From the NCBI GenBank assembly GCA_903888345.1, contig CAISTG010000055.1:1-52692 (forward strand): a DNA stretch of 52,692 nucleotides. Reading direction: 5' to 3'. Of the stretch, positions 800-6,859 are shown one piece after another. A model generated the notes under the pieces. It was not told the DNA's origin, made no database searches, and worked only from the letters and a program-made list of their open reading frames with translations. Numbering within the stretch: the first letter of the stretch is position 1; the number at the start of each line of letters is the position of its first letter. The translations under genes and the position numbers were made by a program. Source of the DNA: Candidatus Buchananbacteria bacterium. GTDB lineage: Bacteria > Patescibacteriota > Patescibacteriia > 2-01-FULL-39-33.

Positions 800-1054
800 T
801 CAATCTCCCTCAATCTCTTTTAAAACCCAATCATTCCCAGATGACTCTACAATCGATATTTCTAGACCGCTGGCGATGTCGCCTTCAGCTAGCATCTTGA
901 TGTTGAACTCTAAATTTTCAGGCTGCACTGTTTCACCGTGTTCAATTATAGAACCCAGCTCGATAATTGCCTTAGTAACTTTTTGCAATTCGTGGTTTTC
1001 CGCCTCTTTGAGAATCGCCCGATAAATCAGATCGGCCACATGGAAATCATGCAT
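800..1054 (-). CDS. hypA: HypA-like nickel chaperone lacking the zinc domain
   Basis: HypA delivers nickel to [NiFe] hydrogenase; its nickel is bound by the N-terminal Met-His. Here the protein starts MHD and keeps the HypA pattern of an alpha/beta domain (VTKAIIELGS, then a PENLEF segment, MLAEGDIASGLE, and an EISIVE strand). At 84 aa it is about 30 residues shorter than usual and has no CxxC pair, so the zinc domain is absent. It is the last gene of the hydrogenase operon, 8 nt after the methyltransferase gene, which supports the assignment. Residue 3 is Asp where Glu is usual. HypB, which normally partners HypA, is not in this window. Confidence 0.7.
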   Translation of the reverse strand: MHDFHVADLIYRAILKEAENHELQKVTKAIIELGSIIEHGETVQPENLEFNIKMLAEGDIASGLEISIVESSGNDWVLKEIEGD

Positions 1055-1062
1055 AATATTAA

Positions 1063-1623
1063 TTAAAATTTATAAACAAAAGCATAATAATCGCGCTTCG
1101 CGTCTAAGGTTATTTTATTAACATAACTAATTTCTGGCAAGGGACAACCCTTGACGATAACCATGGCGCCTGGCTTTAATTCGTGTTTTAATTTCTGTGC
1201 CACGCGTCCCAATAACGGCGGAACCAGATAGACATAGACAAAATCAGCATCACTTAAATCAGCTCGAAAAAAGTTTTTGAAATAAACCCGAGCCAAACCG
1301 CGACCCTGAAACCATGATTTGATTAATGCTTGCAGAAACGGAAAAAGCGACAATTCATAACCCACGCATTTTTTGGGCTCAAACTGGGCCGCTGCCATCA
1401 AAAAATTTCCGCCACCACAACCGATGTCATAAATTACCGACTCCGAATTAATCCGAAATTGTGAAAAGATTGCATTAAAATGCTGCCGCTCGGTTTGAAC
1501 TGGTGGAACTTGAGTGACAAATAAAATAAACAAAATGTTAACTACCACATAAATAGAAACCACTGCGGTAACAACAACTGTCAAGCCCAAAATTACCAAA
1601 ACCAAATAATAAATAATAATCAT
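1063..1623 (-). CDS. Membrane-anchored class I SAM methyltransferase
   Basis: 186 aa. One or two hydrophobic N-terminal segments (residues 2-38) are followed by a Rossmann methyltransferase domain with the SAM loop DIGCGGGNF (near residue 67) and a later strand with the DADFVYVYLVP motif. This layout resembles the small membrane-anchored lysine methyltransferases of the FAM173 type, but the substrate is unknown. It lies 9 nt after the hydrogenase large-subunit stop. A second gene of the same layout lies in the same operon at 5149-5661. Whether it modifies the hydrogenase or is merely co-transcribed cannot be told. Confidence 0.75.
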   Translation of the reverse strand: MIIIYYLVLVILGLTVVVTAVVSIYVVVNILFILFVTQVPPVQTERQHFNAIFSQFRINSESVIYDIGCGGGNFLMAAAQFEPKKCVGYELSLFPFLQALIKSWFQGRGLARVYFKNFFRADLSDADFVYVYLVPPLLGRVAQKLKHELKPGAMVIVKGCPLPEISYVNKITLDAKRDYYAFVYKF

Positions 1624-1632
1624 AGTTTAAAA

Positions 1633-2931
1633 TTAATGCGTGGCACAAGAAATACACGGATCATAAGCGCGAATTAAGGCTCGAATTTTAATAGCCCGCT
1701 TCGCCTCCGGCAAGTCCATGACATTAGGCAAGTAGGCCAATAAATCATCTTCTAAATTTTTTAAAAAGGAAACGGTTGGCGTAATAATCTGACAATCAGC
1801 AATTATTCCGTCACGATTAATCCGATAGCCATGATACAATGTTCCCCGAGGCGCTTCCACAGCAGCGCAGCCATAACTTTCCTGACCCCGCGGATTAGCT
1901 TCGGCGATGAGTGCCAATTCCGCCGCCGGATTAACTTCCGGTCGCAAACTAACCCTTAAATCTCGCAGTAATAGCTCAGCCTCTTCCAAGCAATGGATAA
2001 TTTCAATGGCCTGAGCCACAATATTTTTAAAAGTATTATATTCCGGCAATTGCCAGTTTAAGCCCTTAAAAACACCCGCCGCTAGTGGCCGCAAATACCG
2101 ATGATTGATATTAAGGCGAGCCAACGCCCCCACCATAAACGGTTGACCGTCTAATTCAGCTGACTTAGCGGCACGATAAGGTTCTTCAATTTCTTTAATA
2201 CTCTTAGTAAATTTAGTTGCGGCAATAATCTTCTCGCTTCCATCTGCCTGCAATAACTTTAAATGCCCATCATAAAACGGATAGGTTTTACCGTCATAGA
2301 GCGCCACAAACTGGGTCGGGCGAGAAAATTTTGGTAGCTTCACTTTAAGCACCATATTGACAACTGCTAAAGCTTTTTTTAAAGCCTGAGGATAACGATT
2401 TAACAAATTATCTAATTCGGCCACCTCCGGCAGCACTTTAAAGCCACCGACTTCACAAGCAATTGGATGAACCGCCCGGCCGCCAACAACCTCAATTATT
2501 TTTAGTGCCCACTCACGCAATTCCATCGCCGCACTAGTTTCTTTTTTGTGCTGGCTAATAAACTTGAGATCATCGGTAATATCAAAAAAATCCGGCAATG
2601 ACAAGAAAAATAAATGTAAGGCATGACTATGAATCATTTGCGCCATCAGCATGAGTTTCCGCAACTTTATCGTTTGCGCTGATGGTTGAATTTCAAAAGC
2701 AGTTTCAATCGCTTTAATCGAACAAATTTTATGGACCACCGGACAAATACCGCAAATTCGCGAAGTAATAATTGGAGCCTCATAAAAATTTCGGCCGACC
2801 AAAATTCCCTCGATCAATCTCGCACCTTCCGTGGTCATCATTTTGGCCGACTTAACATCGCCACGTAAAATCTCGGCGACGAAATCGCTGTGGCCTTCCA
2901 TTTTACCAATATGATTGACTTGTATTTTCAT
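1633..2931 (-). CDS. hydA: Group 3b [NiFe] hydrogenase large (alpha) subunit
   Basis: 432 aa, normal length for the family. It carries the NiFe active site. Motif L1 is RICGICPVVH with Cys60, Cys63 and His67; motif L2 is DPCISCATH with Cys426, Cys429 and His432. The Glu of the N-terminal EGH motif is present. The alpha-beta-gamma-delta subunit set in one operon points to the soluble NADP-linked (sulfhydrogenase-type) group 3b. The protein ends exactly at the L2 His: there is no C-terminal peptide for a maturation endopeptidase to remove, and no such protease is encoded nearby. Gap to the small-subunit gene is 8 nt. Confidence 0.95.
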   Translation of the reverse strand: MKIQVNHIGKMEGHSDFVAEILRGDVKSAKMMTTEGARLIEGILVGRNFYEAPIITSRICGICPVVHKICSIKAIETAFEIQPSAQTIKLRKLMLMAQMIHSHALHLFFLSLPDFFDITDDLKFISQHKKETSAAMELREWALKIIEVVGGRAVHPIACEVGGFKVLPEVAELDNLLNRYPQALKKALAVVNMVLKVKLPKFSRPTQFVALYDGKTYPFYDGHLKLLQADGSEKIIAATKFTKSIKEIEEPYRAAKSAELDGQPFMVGALARLNINHRYLRPLAAGVFKGLNWQLPEYNTFKNIVAQAIEIIHCLEEAELLLRDLRVSLRPEVNPAAELALIAEANPRGQESYGCAAVEAPRGTLYHGYRINRDGIIADCQIITPTVSFLKNLEDDLLAYLPNVMDLPEAKRAIKIRALIRAYDPCISCATH

Positions 2932-2939
2932 AATTTAAC

Positions 2940-3719
2940 TTATTTTTTCTTTGGCGGGACAATCAGCGCTTTATTAATACTGTCGCGCGCACCAAAAATT
3001 TCCAAGACATGATTAATTTCCTGCTCCGTAAAATTTTGCTCGAGGTGAGCTAACAAATTCTTAACTGCCGCACCTTCAAATAACCCGCGACAACCCCAGC
3101 AAGCCTGCTTGCTTTTTAGGCAGACAGCATGGCAACCGCCCAAAGTAATCGGACCAAGACAAATTTGACCTTGTTGCAATAAACAGTCATAGCCATTATT
3201 CTGACATTCATGACAAACAGGATTTTGTGGCAATTTCGGCCGGCGGTTATTTATTAATTGCTGTAGCACCTCCATTAATTCATCACCCGTAACTGGACAG
3301 CCCGGAATAACGAAATCCACCTTAACAAAATTTTCAACCTCTTTAATGTCAGGATTTTCTACCCGCAACTGATTCTTATAGACATATTTGATGGTTTTCT
3401 TTTTCAAGCCATAATTCTTTAATTCCCAAACTCCTCCCAGGGCAGCACAATTCCCCAAAACCACCAGTAACTTCGAACGCTGGCGCATCTCCCTCAATAG
3501 CTTTAGATTTTCTTTAGTGACCGGATTACCCTCAATCAAACAGAGATCGTACTTAATATCCAGCATTGGCTTATCTTCAATCAAACGGAACTCATCAACC
3601 TCGAAATGCTGGAGTAAATCCAAAAATTTCTGGCCTTGATCCAACAAAACAAACTGGCAGCCTTCGCAGGAAGTCAGTCCAATAATCGCTAATCGTTTCT
3701 TTTTTATTTTAGCCCTCAT
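2940..3719 (-). CDS. hydD: Group 3b [NiFe] hydrogenase small (delta) subunit
   Basis: 259 aa. The small subunit carries iron-sulfur clusters that move electrons from the NiFe site. Cluster ligands are visible: TSCEGC (Cys18, Cys21), GNCAALGG, PGCPV, then a Cys-rich C-terminal part with CHEC, a single Cys, ICLGP, GGCHAVC and CWGC. No Tat signal is present, which fits a cytoplasmic enzyme. The ATG overlaps the stop of the HypC-HydE gene by 4 nt (ATGA type), so the two are translationally coupled. Confidence 0.94.
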   Translation of the reverse strand: MRAKIKKKRLAIIGLTSCEGCQFVLLDQGQKFLDLLQHFEVDEFRLIEDKPMLDIKYDLCLIEGNPVTKENLKLLREMRQRSKLLVVLGNCAALGGVWELKNYGLKKKTIKYVYKNQLRVENPDIKEVENFVKVDFVIPGCPVTGDELMEVLQQLINNRRPKLPQNPVCHECQNNGYDCLLQQGQICLGPITLGGCHAVCLKSKQACWGCRGLFEGAAVKNLLAHLEQNFTEQEINHVLEIFGARDSINKALIVPPKKK

Positions 3720-4981
3720 ATTAATATTTTAAGTTCACGTTCCATCATTTCGTAACTTAGCTCGCCCTTAAACAGCGCCCAGCGTTCATATTTTTTTTCA
3801 CTATCATAAAACTTGTCATCATAAATTTGGTAACTGCGCCGATAAGCTTCCGGCGTTAAATTAAACATTACGGAATTAGCGCCAGCTAGAAAGCATTTTT
3901 GGCGTGCCGCTTCTCCCCCGCCCAACGTTTCCATGGCGGTAGTAACCGGTATGCGCGCCGTTGGCAGTAATAATCTACAAGTGGCAATAAATTTGAGCAC
4001 CTGCTCAAAAATAATTGCCGGCGCTGTCGCTAAGGGAGTATTTGAACTCGGCACCAAGGGACCAAACGAGGGCATGAAAGTATCGAATTCTTTCAGTAAC
4101 CACAGATCATTAGCCAAATCTTCGACGGTCTGATCGGGTAAACCCAGGATACAACCGGTTGAGATAACAAAGCCTAAGTCTTTCATGGCTCGCAAATGAT
4201 CTAAGCGATCAGCCAAACCCTTGGCCGGATGTAACTTCTCGTAAAGTTCTGCATTGGAAGTTTCAAAGCGATATAAAACACCATTAACTCCGGCAGCTTT
4301 TAATTGCTCATAATCAGCGCGACTACGATCGCCGATACTCAGGTACAAAAACAAACGGCACTGCTTTTTTATTTCTTTAACGATTTCGACTAACTTATCT
4401 ATCGTATACCAATCGTCTTCACCGGACTGTAAAACCAGCAATTTATAACCTTTATCATTAACCGCGCTAACGGCAGTTTGAATTATTTCTTCCGGCGACA
4501 TCCGATACAACTGCTTACACTGATTGGATTTTCGTAAACCGCAATAATGGCAATCATTCTTGCAGTAGTTCGAAAATTCAATAATACCATGAATGCAAAT
4601 ATGGTTTTTGATGCTCGCTAAACGAACCACATTAGCCTCGGAATACAGTGCTAACAGATCTGCTTCTGTTGATAGTGATAATAATTCTTGTAAGTCAGCT
4701 TTAGTTAACGCGGAATTAGCGGCGCGTTCGAAGATCTCTTTTAATTCTGATCGGATTTCTGCCGCTACTGTTCGCGGATAACTGGTCAATAAATCTTCAA
4801 TTTCCTGAGCTTCTTCGGCCGATATTTTCTTGATCAAATAATCACCCGTAAACAACACAAAATCTCCGGGAGATAACGACTCTGCCGTACCGACTTTAAC
4901 CACCTGTTGTTGTCCATTATAGTCGATTTCAGCCAACAAACCGTTGACTGCTTTAACTTGGGCCGGCAGAGTTAAACACAT
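3716..4981 (-). CDS. HypC-HydE fusion: hydrogenase maturation chaperone joined to radical SAM protein
   Basis: 421 aa. Residues 1 to about 65 are a HypC domain: it begins MCLTLPAQV, giving the essential Cys2, and ends with GDYLIKKIS. HypC carries the Fe(CN)2CO group during [NiFe] maturation. Residues about 75-421 match HydE, a radical SAM enzyme of [FeFe] hydrogenase maturation: the 4Fe-4S motif CKNDCHYC uses Cys140, Cys144 and Cys147, and typical stretches EFSNYC, VLQSGED, ILGLPDQT and PVTTAMETLGGG follow. Finding HydE attached to HypC in a [NiFe] operon is unexpected. Both halves look intact. No HydG (tyrosine lyase type), HydF, HypD, HypE or HypF is in the window. Confidence 0.9.
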   Translation of the reverse strand: MCLTLPAQVKAVNGLLAEIDYNGQQQVVKVGTAESLSPGDFVLFTGDYLIKKISAEEAQEIEDLLTSYPRTVAAEIRSELKEIFERAANSALTKADLQELLSLSTEADLLALYSEANVVRLASIKNHICIHGIIEFSNYCKNDCHYCGLRKSNQCKQLYRMSPEEIIQTAVSAVNDKGYKLLVLQSGEDDWYTIDKLVEIVKEIKKQCRLFLYLSIGDRSRADYEQLKAAGVNGVLYRFETSNAELYEKLHPAKGLADRLDHLRAMKDLGFVISTGCILGLPDQTVEDLANDLWLLKEFDTFMPSFGPLVPSSNTPLATAPAIIFEQVLKFIATCRLLLPTARIPVTTAMETLGGGEAARQKCFLAGANSVMFNLTPEAYRRSYQIYDDKFYDSEKKYERWALFKGELSYEMMERELKILI

Positions 4982-5148: not shown

Positions 5149-5661
5149 TTAAACTTGATACAAATACATCGGCAAGTCCTTATCGGTGGGCTTGTCTTCT
5201 TTGACTAAATGATCTTTCCAGTCGGTCATATCCCAACAACCAACCACGACACGAGTCCCCGGCTTCAATTCTTTCTTGAATTTTGCTAACAAGCGTTTAT
5301 AGCTTTTGTCTTGCAAAAAAACAAAGACAACATCAGCGCCACTCAGATCATAATTAAATAAATCACCATACAAAATTGCTGCGCCTTTTTTAAAGATACT
5401 TTTGATCCAGGCATAGAAATACGGCAAGACGAAAATTTCAATACCAATTGCTTCTGCGCCCTGATTAGCGGCTTCAAAAACTAACCGGCCATCACCACAG
5501 CCCAAATCATAAACGCGTTCACCTGGCTTAATCGCCGCCAAAGCGACCATCCGGCCAACATCTTTGCGTTTGGTTGGCAACCAAGGAGCGGCAGAAATAG
5601 CACCATAAACAGCGGTGCCTAAAATTAAGAAGACTAGAAGATAAAGTAAGGTGGACATCAT
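5149..5661 (-). CDS. Membrane-anchored class I SAM methyltransferase (second copy)
   Basis: 170 aa from the ATG at 5661; an ATG two codons... immediately downstream (5658) is also possible, and a TTG at 5667 is less likely. A hydrophobic N-terminal helix is followed by the SAM loop DLGCGDGRL and a GADVVFVFLQDKSYKRL segment. It shares the whole layout, including the PGTRVVVG strand, with the methyltransferase at 1063-1623, so they are probably paralogues, about 30-40 percent alike by eye in the core. Substrate unknown; membrane lysine methyltransferase is the closest known type. Confidence 0.75.
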   Translation of the reverse strand: MMSTLLYLLVFLILGTAVYGAISAAPWLPTKRKDVGRMVALAAIKPGERVYDLGCGDGRLVFEAANQGAEAIGIEIFVLPYFYAWIKSIFKKGAAILYGDLFNYDLSGADVVFVFLQDKSYKRLLAKFKKELKPGTRVVVGCWDMTDWKDHLVKEDKPTDKDLPMYLYQV

Positions 5662-5682
5662 AATCAAATATTATTAATTGAT

Positions 5683-6504
5683 TTAAATTGCATTGGGGAT
5701 ATCTTTAAGTTGTGCATAAGAAAACACTGGGCCATCCTTACAGACATAATAGCGTCCGATAGCACAATGCTGGCAAACACCGTGACCACAATACATTTTG
5801 CGTTCCAGAGATAACCAAATATTTTCCGGCTTAACTTTTTTATTTAATAATTCTTTAATAACAAACTTATACATAATAGGCGGACCGACCAAAACAACAG
5901 CCGAATCAGAATTAATTTCATGCTTTTTGATTAATTCAGTCACTAAACCCTTCTCACCTTTCCATTTAGCGGATGGCAGATCTAAAATAATACCAAATTC
6001 CGCCTGACGATTCCACTTCGCATATTCTTGTTTAAATAGCAGGGTATTTTCATTCTGACAGCCATAAAAAATCTGTAACTTAGGCGTTTTTAAGCGACCC
6101 TCCATAAAATCAACAATCAATGGTCGTAGTGGCACAAACCCACAGCCACCACCGATTAAAATTAAATTTTTAGCACCAATTGCTCCTAAATCAAAGCCAT
6201 TGCCAAAAGGTCCCCGCACATAAACTTCGTCCCCCACCTGAAGCTGATTTAATTGATGCGTTAACTGACCGACATCACGAATGGCGAGTTCAAAATATTT
6301 GGCCGCATAAAACGGCGAAGAACAAATACTAATCGGACATTCACCATATCCTGCCAAGCCGATTTGCATAAATTGCCCGGCCAAAAAATCAAACTTTTTT
6401 TGATCCTTAAGTTCCTTAAACCGAAATCTAATCAATTTAGTATCAATTGATTCTTGTGAGACAGCCACGACTACCGCTAATTTTGGTTTATAAACGTTAA
6501 TCAT
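5683..6504 (-). CDS. hydG: Group 3b hydrogenase gamma subunit: FAD/NAD(P)-binding oxidoreductase
   Basis: 273 aa. It passes electrons between the hydrogenase clusters and NAD(P). A ferredoxin-reductase-like FAD domain (AGQFMQIGLAG) is followed by an NAD(P) domain with LILIGGGCGFVPLRP and by a C-terminal [2Fe-2S] site of the PyrK type with Cys239, Cys244, Cys247 and Cys255 (MYCGHGVCQHC and YVCKDGPVF). The start at 6504 is one nucleotide after the stop of the preceding gene; an upstream in-frame extension to 6567 would overlap that gene and lacks family similarity. The symbol hydG here means the sulfhydrogenase gamma subunit, not the [FeFe] tyrosine lyase. Confidence 0.92.
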   Translation of the reverse strand: MINVYKPKLAVVVAVSQESIDTKLIRFRFKELKDQKKFDFLAGQFMQIGLAGYGECPISICSSPFYAAKYFELAIRDVGQLTHQLNQLQVGDEVYVRGPFGNGFDLGAIGAKNLILIGGGCGFVPLRPLIVDFMEGRLKTPKLQIFYGCQNENTLLFKQEYAKWNRQAEFGIILDLPSAKWKGEKGLVTELIKKHEINSDSAVVLVGPPIMYKFVIKELLNKKVKPENIWLSLERKMYCGHGVCQHCAIGRYYVCKDGPVFSYAQLKDIPNAI

Positions 6505-6505
6505 T

Positions 6506-6859
6506 TTATTTACAATCTTTAGTACAATTACATTTATTTTCCCATTCTTCACATTTACCATTGCCACAGTTTGAACAAATGCTTGCTGACCCCATTAAGG
6601 GCACACACCCATCATCGTCAGCCATATCGTCGTGCGGGGAATACTGTAACCCACCTGAAATACCGACCAATCCAGAACAACATTCACCGAAGCGACCATC
6701 TGGGCCAAGAGAAGCATTTTCAAACGCCTCGCCGGCCTTTATACAGCCATTCAAACTAGATTCCTCTGTTGGTTTATACGAATATATAACAGCAAAAATT
6801 ACCAAAATAATTACCAATAGGCCGGCAAAACTACAAAATACTACATTTATTTTTTTCAT
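6506..6859 (-). CDS. Cys-rich exported or membrane-anchored small protein
   Basis: 117 aa. Residues 8-27 form a signal or anchor helix. The rest is predicted outside and holds about 13 cysteines, ending in the calcium/disulfide-like pattern CGNGKCEEWENKCNCTKDC, a motif (CGNGxCExxENxxxCxxDC) often found in surface proteins of uncultivated bacteria and archaea. It lies inside the hydrogenase operon, 7 nt after the beta-subunit gene and 1 nt before the gamma-subunit gene, so it is certainly co-transcribed. A cytoplasmic hydrogenase has no known need for such a protein; its role is unknown. Confidence 0.75.
   Translation of the reverse strand: MKKINVVFCSFAGLLVIILVIFAVIYSYKPTEESSLNGCIKAGEAFENASLGPDGRFGECCSGLVGISGGLQYSPHDDMADDDGCVPLMGSASICSNCGNGKCEEWENKCNCTKDCK

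What the first reader, a model, noticed from the sequence alone, without database searches (positions are those of the whole stretch)
3716..4981. HypC fused to a HydE-like radical SAM enzyme inside a [NiFe] hydrogenase operon
Seen: residues 1-65 are HypC with Cys2, and residues 75-421 are HydE-like with a complete CxxxCxxC cluster (Cys140, 144, 147). Known: HypC carries Fe(CN)2CO for [NiFe] enzymes, HydE works in [FeFe] cofactor assembly, and the source of the CO ligand in anaerobic [NiFe] maturation is unsettled. Inference: the fused radical SAM domain may make or deliver an iron-ligand precursor directly to HypC, a different maturation route.
Basis: partly seen in the sequence, partly recalled or inferred. 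Interest (0 to 1): 0.88.

Follow-up and report, generated by a model that had tools for sequence, protein, structure and literature searches.

The report
HypC-HydE fusion replacing HypDEF
A small uncultured bacterium carries a [NiFe] hydrogenase whose usual iron-ligand assembly proteins (HypD, HypE, HypF) are missing and seem to be replaced by one protein, a HypC carrier fused to a radical-SAM enzyme borrowed from the other hydrogenase class, and the same fusion recurs across many phyla, often next to HydG, the enzyme known to make carbon monoxide and cyanide on iron.

Summary
Window 4981-3716 (-) is one intact 421-aa ORF: HypC (1-65, Cys2) joined to a HydE domain (88-396, above NCBI's HydE cut-off, C140/C144/C147), inside a group 3b [NiFe] operon. 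It is no assembly join. Full-length fusions occur in 14 Patescibacteria genomes, and 76 of 80 loci fetched from GTDB carry it, from many bacterial phyla and DPANN archaea. HypD is absent from all 14 Patescibacteria fusion genomes (found in 13 of 380 others). HypE and HypF are absent from the eight tested. HydF is absent, and [FeFe] hydrogenase is absent except in one genome. Intact HydG sits beside the fusion in 6 of 14, and in 42 of the 76 fused GTDB loci. One Planctomycetota locus reads HypC-HydE, HydG, HypA, HypB plus [NiFe] subunits. I conclude: a HypDEF-free, radical-SAM route of [NiFe] maturation. Most likely HydG makes an Fe(CO)2(CN) unit that the HydE domain processes and hands to the fused HypC. 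The chemistry is inferred. The window's own genome lacks HydG, so its ligand source is open, and HydG's 2 CO:1 CN does not match the canonical 1 CO:2 CN. I found no description in the literature library. A second HypDEF-free candidate route (HypC + EamA + DUF6390) turned up alongside.

The parts
3716..4981 (-). HypC-HydE fusion gene, 421 aa
   Evidence: full length in 8 of 38 relatives, 7 of 380 phylum genomes and 76 of 80 GTDB loci
4787..4981 (-). HypC domain, residues 1-65, Cys2 at bases 4976-4978
   Evidence: PF01455 1.1e-13, full profile 1-65/65; MCxxxP in 77/80 fused sequences
3719..4759 (-). HydE-like radical SAM domain, residues 75-421 (TIGR03956 match 88-396)
   Evidence: 266 bits, cut-off 254.6; T. 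maritima HydE 1.4e-68; fused HydE domains group apart from [FeFe] HydE
4541..4564 (-). CX3CX2C [4Fe-4S]/SAM motif, C140-C144-C147
   Evidence: invariant in A1 and A2
2940..3719 (-). HyhS, [NiFe] small subunit, start overlaps the fusion's stop (ATGA)
   Evidence: PF01058 1.3e-22; NF040831 3.7e-46
1633..2931 (-). HyhL, [NiFe] large subunit; RICGICPVVH and C-terminal DPCISCATH with no extension to cleave
   Evidence: PF00374 3.5e-39; NF040828 1.1e-69; sequence; aligned to P. furiosus SHI alpha
5683..6567 (-). HyhG, FAD/NAD(P)-binding subunit
   Evidence: NF006220, NF040830
6867..7877 (-). HyhB, 4Fe-4S electron-transfer subunit
   Evidence: PF17179 2.3e-25; NF040829
800..1054 (-). mini-HypA, 84 aa, matches only the first 68 of 112 HypA positions
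   Evidence: PF01155 6.7e-7; conserved next to the hydrogenase in relatives
1063..1623 (-). methyltransferase-like MT1 in the operon (sub-threshold NF041081)
   Evidence: also in G001 and G005
5149..5667 (-). methyltransferase-like MT2 in the operon (sub-threshold NF041081)

Best explanation
The fusion is the central maturase of a HypDEF-free route for building the iron half of the [NiFe] active site. SHOWN: HypC is fused to a complete HydE-type radical SAM domain in [NiFe] operons; HypD, HypE and HypF are missing; HydF and, as a rule, [FeFe] hydrogenase are missing; HydG is next to it in about half of cases. INFERRED: HydG cleaves tyrosine and builds [Fe(CO)2(CN)(Cys)]; the HydE domain takes this unit and, by SAM radical chemistry, frees or remodels it; HypC Cys2, held on the same chain, captures the iron unit and carries it to the apo-large subunit; HypA (with or without HypB) then adds nickel. 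The fusion thus does in one chain what HypC+HypD, fed by HypE/HypF, do elsewhere. In HydG-less genomes such as this one the CO/CN source is unknown; the HydE domain may accept an externally supplied or differently made precursor.
For: Intact, conserved fusion in 14 Patescibacteria genomes and 76 GTDB loci. HypD 0/16 in the relatives set and in none of the 7 phylum-sample fusion genomes, although the same search finds it in 13/380 at up to 2.8e-154. HypE 0/16. HypF only by TsaD/YrdC/acylphosphatase-type partial hits, none over cut-off. All 7 fusion genomes of the phylum sample lack both HypD and DUF6390, while 34 of 42 other HypC-bearing genomes have one of them (Fisher P 7.5e-5, not corrected for shared descent). 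HydG over cut-off beside the fusion in 6/14 and in the locus of 42/76, mostly directly adjacent; CX3CX2C kept in 52/52 and CX2CX22C in 47/52 HydGs. L116: HypC-HydE, HydG, HypA, HypB, [NiFe] small and large, i.e. CDEF swapped for C-E plus G. HydF absent; [FeFe] in 1 of 14. HydE residues conserved between fused and [FeFe] HydE include R238, M303, T348, M372, Y384, Y387, while H131 (R in all 7 [FeFe] HydE) and F239 (H in 6 of 7) are fixed in the fused group. Large subunits keep RxCGxC, E-x-PRG, PT and DPCxxCxxH. HydG-to-HydE direct transfer of the Fe(CO)2(CN) unit is established for [FeFe] maturation (PMC11736057; PMC12752695).
Against: No biochemistry. HydG is absent from the window's genome and from 7 other fusion genomes, so HydG-made ligands cannot be the whole story. 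HydG makes 2 CO:1 CN per Fe, whereas the canonical site needs 1 CO:2 CN. Genomes are MAGs, and absences could be gaps, though they repeat. HypE/HypF were tested only in the 8 fusion genomes of the window's class, HypB was not tested in the window's genome, and nothing was tested genome-wide outside Patescibacteria.
Confidence: 0.58

Rival explanations
1. Radical-SAM route without HydG chemistry: the HydE domain itself makes or modifies a ligand (for instance the CO or CN) from another substrate on HypC-bound iron, and HydG is an optional helper that was lost in several lineages.
For: 8 of 14 Patescibacteria fusion genomes lack HydG, and 12 of 24 GTDB loci with all four hyh genes show none nearby. 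H131 and F239 are fixed in the fused group and differ from [FeFe] HydE.
Against: HydG adjacency is recurrent across distant phyla. Most HydE active-site residues are unchanged, and I know of no precedent for free-standing ligand synthesis by a HydE-type enzyme.
Confidence: 0.2
2. HypC-HydE is a bifunctional or recruited protein whose real job is [FeFe] maturation or another radical SAM reaction, with HypC merely a docking domain; the [NiFe] enzyme gets its cofactor by undetected HypDEF homologues.
For: HydE scores over the [FeFe] equivalog cut-off; one fusion genome (G265) has [FeFe] hydrogenases.
Against: No [FeFe] hydrogenase in 13 of 14 fusion genomes, no HydF in any, while a genuine [FeFe] genome in the same phylum (G063) has unfused HydE, HydG and HydF together. 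HypD, HypE and HypF searches were blank with working controls.
Confidence: 0.1
3. The [NiFe] hydrogenase is not functional or carries an incomplete cofactor; HypDEF were lost during genome reduction and the fusion is a leftover.
For: HyhL lacks the cleavable tail in the window's group; mini-HypA lacks its C-terminal part.
Against: All four cysteine ligands, E-x-PRG and PT motifs are kept, four subunits are intact and syntenic across families, and the fusion is conserved across distant phyla.
Confidence: 0.08
4. Artefact: frameshift or assembly join of hypC and hydE.
For: None found.
Against: The same fusion recurs in about 80 sequences from independent assemblies and the fused HydE domains form one lineage apart from [FeFe] HydE.
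Confidence: 0.01

Closest known systems
HypCDEF pathway of [NiFe]-hydrogenase maturation
   Same: Uses HypC with Cys2, serves a [NiFe] large subunit with four Cys ligands, sits with HypA (HypB in L116) and a HycI protease in many loci.
   Different: HypD, HypE and HypF are missing; HypC is fused to a radical SAM HydE domain and often neighbours HydG.
HydE/HydG(/HydF) pathway of [FeFe]-hydrogenase maturation
   Same: HydE fold and cluster, HydG with both cluster motifs, HydE/HydG adjacent as in [FeFe] operons.
   Different: HydF is absent, [FeFe] hydrogenase is absent in 13/14, HydE is fused to HypC, R-to-H at 131 and H-to-F at 239 (window numbering) are fixed in the fused group.
HypX-dependent aerobic CO supply
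   Same: An accessory source of the CO ligand for [NiFe] sites.
   Different: HypX uses formyl-THF and works with HypCDEF (PMC12134894); here a radical SAM protein appears to replace the scaffold itself. HypX was not searched for.
CPR group 3b hydrogenases hyd1/hyd2 (Jaffe et al. 2020, PMC7304191)
   Same: Same hydrogenase family; that paper noted a neighbouring family with HypC homology.
   Different: The passages read report neither the HydE fusion, HydG, nor the absence of HypDEF.

Membership tests
HypC/HupF chaperone | HypC/HupF domain with N-terminal MC motif (Cys2) | tested here: met
   PF01455 full length 1.1e-13; MCxxxP 77/80
HypC/HupF chaperone | TIGR00074 subfamily cut-off | tested here: not met
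   39.4 bits against 48 for the window protein; the G019 fusion reaches 56.3
HypC/HupF chaperone | partner HypD in the genome | tested here: not met
HydE ([FeFe] maturase equivalog TIGR03956) | score over curated cut-off and CX3CX2C | tested here: met
   266.2 vs 254.6; other fusions lie on either side of the cut-off
HydE ([FeFe] maturase equivalog TIGR03956) | occurs with HydF and [FeFe] hydrogenase | tested here: not met
   HydF absent, PF02906 in 1 of 14
HydE ([FeFe] maturase equivalog TIGR03956) | groups with [FeFe]-associated HydE in a tree | tested here: not met
   fused HydE plus two unfused relatives separate from all 7 [FeFe]-type HydE, SH-aLRT 96, quick tree only
Canonical HypABCDEF maturation system | HypD, HypE, HypF present | tested here: not met
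Canonical HypABCDEF maturation system | HypB present | not tested
   not searched in the window's genome; HypB present in L116
Group 3b [NiFe] hydrogenase | four subunits of sulfhydrogenase type, four Cys ligands in the large subunit | tested here: met
   best NCBIfam models ShyA-D/HydA-D type, all below equivalog cut-offs
HydG-HydE ligand synthesis | HydG present in the window's genome | tested here: not met
   only the fusion itself is hit by TIGR03955 in G000
HypC-HydE route of [NiFe] maturation (proposed) | CO/CN delivery to the [NiFe] site | not testable with these tools
   needs biochemistry/FTIR

The most novel reading that the evidence does not exclude
In these organisms the [NiFe] iron is built from the [FeFe] synthon: HydG's Fe(CO)2(CN) unit is carried on HypC-HydE into the large subunit, so either a ligand exchange converts 2 CO:1 CN to 1 CO:2 CN, or the mature site really is a NiFe(CO)2(CN) site, a [NiFe] cofactor with a different ligand set. 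[quoted passage not shown]
Probability: 0.3. Interest if true: 0.95.

Novelty: new variant of a known kind. Interest (0 to 1): 0.86.

Why it matters
[quoted passage not shown] 'radical SAM' and 'HydG' do not occur in its text (PMC12134894). Here are natural [NiFe] operons in which the CN-making and scaffold proteins are gone and a radical SAM maturase is fused to the carrier, frequently with the one enzyme known to make CO and CN on iron. It would link the two hydrogenase classes, whose sites are taken to be assembled by unrelated pathways, and offers a two- or three-gene alternative to hypCDEF for heterologous [NiFe] production.

Tried and rejected
Single-sequence scan of genome contigs found nothing; the alignment-based scan did. 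Frameshift/assembly join: rejected by recurrence. HypF hits at about 1e-9 in most genomes match only TsaD/YrdC-type or acylphosphatase parts, none over cut-off; the exception, a 415-aa C-terminal-half match in G032, is not a fusion genome. HydF hits at about 1e-22 are partial and match only the GTPase part of the model, except the full-length hit in G063. HydE-like 'radical SAM protein' on Bradyrhizobium plasmids lies beside efflux, ABC-transporter and sugar genes, not hydrogenase genes: used only as outgroup. Methyltransferases MT1/MT2 as a substitute ligand source: dropped, not consistent across HydG-less operons. The careful tree did not finish, so only the quick tree is used. The whole genome was not available as a file, so genome-wide tests rest on the genome search, whose 12 searches are spent.

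Full report
OBSERVATION. The ORF at 4981-3716 on the minus strand is intact, 421 aa, and its TGA overlaps the ATG of the [NiFe] small-subunit gene. Residues 1-65 are HypC (PF01455, 1.1e-13), residues 88-396 are HydE (TIGR03956, 266 bits against a curated cut-off of 254.6) with C140-C144-C147. Solved relatives are T. maritima HydE (1.4e-68) and, for the N-terminus, HypC. AlphaFold2 on 14 fusions gives a single confident model (pLDDT 90, pTM 0.90) whose best structural matches are HydE entries, including the complex-B-bound ones. The operon reads HyhB, HyhG, MT2, HypC-HydE, HyhS, HyhL, MT1, mini-HypA. HyhL has both Cys-pair motifs and ends at DPCISCATH, so there is no tail for a protease to cut.

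CONSERVATION. In 38 relatives the full fusion is found in 8 genomes of three families; the seven others are 45-61% identical to the window's. A scan of 380 genomes of the phylum finds it in 7, six of them new, so 14 Patescibacteria genomes in all (alignment A2). An alignment-based scan of GTDB genome contigs returned 80 loci, 76 of which carry HypC-HydE; at least one of the four others is only cut at a contig end. Some of these loci are the same genomes as. Record titles include Omnitrophota, Saganbacteria/Margulisiibacteriota, Elusimicrobia, WOR-3, Planctomycetota (with Kuenenia), Deltaproteobacteria, Spirochaetes, Lentisphaerae, Chlamydiae and DPANN archaea. These are MAG labels and some may be mis-binned. 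In a quick maximum-likelihood tree the fused HydE domains (with two unfused relatives, L152 and L165) separate from seven [FeFe]-type HydE with SH-aLRT 96. Two positions are fixed differently: H131 in 80/80 fused (R in 7/7 [FeFe]) and F239 in 79/80 (H in 6/7).

WHAT IS MISSING. HypD: 0 of 16 relatives; phylum-wide it is detected in 13 of 380 genomes with E-values to 2.8e-154 but in no fusion genome. HypE: 0 of 16. HypF: no hit over cut-off; fusion genomes show only partial TsaD/YrdC-type matches. HydF: none in fusion genomes, while G063, which has a true [FeFe] hydrogenase, has HydF at 319 bits and unfused HydE and HydG next to each other. [FeFe] hydrogenase: only G265 among fusion genomes. 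Among 49 HypC-bearing genomes of the phylum sample, none of 7 with the fusion has HypD or DUF6390, while 34 of the other 42 have one of these (Fisher P 7.5e-5; shared descent not corrected). The three routes overlap in one genome only (G298, HypD and DUF6390).

WHAT IS ADDED. HydG over its cut-off lies directly beside or one gene from the fusion in G007, G008, G019, G026, G164 and G219 and in the loci of 42 of 76 GTDB fusions; of 46 HydG ORFs, 38 are within 200 bases of the HydE gene. The SAM cluster motif is present in 52/52 HydGs examined and the auxiliary CX2CX22C in 47/52. Complete operons such as L137 and L150 read HyhB, HyhG, HyhS, HyhL, protease, mini-HypA, HypC-HydE, HydG (in L129, which has the same order without HydG, the protease and mini-HypA are confirmed as HycI and HypA by Pfam). 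L116 (Planctomycetota) reads HypC-HydE, HydG, HypA, HypB and a [NiFe] small/large pair of a different group: the CDEF set is swapped for C-E plus G. L120 pairs the fusion and HydG with a membrane-bound-type [NiFe] enzyme (TAT-type small subunit, large subunit, a membrane protein resembling cytochrome b by eye only, HycI); L159 with Mnh-like genes (named by eye) and HycI. So the route is not tied to group 3b.

MECHANISM. Established elsewhere: HydG turns tyrosine into CO and CN on a dangler iron and releases [Fe(Cys)(CO)2(CN)], which goes directly to HydE, where SAM chemistry reduces it to Fe(I) species (PMC11736057; PMC12752695). In [NiFe] maturation the Fe(CN)2CO unit is built on HypC-HypD with cyanide from carbamoyl phosphate by HypE/HypF, and the anaerobic CO source is unknown (PMC12134894). 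From gene content I infer that the fused HydE domain takes the place of HypD as the site where the iron unit is finished, with HydG upstream where present, and that HypC Cys2 takes the unit from the HydE domain to the large subunit. Most residues shared by all HydE, including the cluster cysteines, R238, T348, M372, Y384 and Y387, are kept, and the [NiFe] pocket motifs of the large subunits are kept, arguing that both ends of the pathway are functional.

GAPS. The window's genome (98.5% complete by the tool's estimate) has no HydG, nor do G001, G002, G005, G060, G165, G168 and G265. Twelve of 24 GTDB loci with all four hyh genes show none nearby, though it may lie elsewhere in those genomes. 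HydG's 2 CO:1 CN does not match 1 CO:2 CN. HypE/HypF absence was tested in 8 fusion genomes only, and outside Patescibacteria only local neighbourhoods were seen.

LITERATURE. Nine searches of the open-access library found no description of a HypC-HydE fusion, of HydG in [NiFe] maturation, or of DUF6390. Jaffe et al. 2020 described CPR group 3b clusters and a neighbouring family with HypC homology; the passages read do not mention this. The Saganbacteria paper has no mention of HypC, HydE, HydG or maturation. Subscription papers and preprints were not searchable.

VERDICT. The interpretation of a distinct maturation route is likely; its chemistry is a hypothesis that is directly testable.

Noticed in passing
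L034:9917-11752, L035:9283-10228, L037:9854-11507, L038:9327-11214, L095:4965-6813, L096:6087-7909: A second HypDEF-free arrangement in Patescibacteria: HypC, EamA permease and DUF6390 (PF19927) in or near [NiFe] hydrogenase genes, with no HypD in nearly all (G298 excepted). DUF6390 is in 31 of 380 phylum genomes; the predicted model has a helical half plus a HypC-like C-terminal barrel (top PDB hit HypC, weak, E 0.024), with conserved Cys and His residues.
   Followed up: partly
window 800-1054: mini-HypA of about 80-85 aa lacking the C-terminal part of HypA is conserved in these operons across phyla.
   Followed up: partly
window 1633-2931: Large subunit ends exactly at DPCxxCxxH with no cleavable tail in the window's family and several other Patescibacteria, while Omnitrophota/Saganbacteria versions keep a short tail and have a protease gene.
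   Followed up: partly
window 1063-1623 and 5149-5667: Two related methyltransferase-like proteins (weak matches to an archaeal protein-lysine methyltransferase model) lie inside the hydrogenase operon; MT1 recurs in G001 and G005.
   Followed up: no
window 6506-6859: 117-aa Cys-rich, apparently membrane-anchored ORF between HyhB and HyhG, overlapping the HyhG start; a similar ORF sits at the same place in L031 (11309-11692).
   Followed up: no
G221, G136, G283, G187, G059, G029, G258, G139: Patescibacteria genomes with HypC but no HypD, no DUF6390 and no fusion: possibly a fourth arrangement, or false HypC matches.
   Followed up: no
L091:3260-5119: 619-aa protein with a HydE-like segment (residues 79-365) in G095, a genome with a HypD fragment and no [FeFe] hydrogenase.
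   Followed up: no
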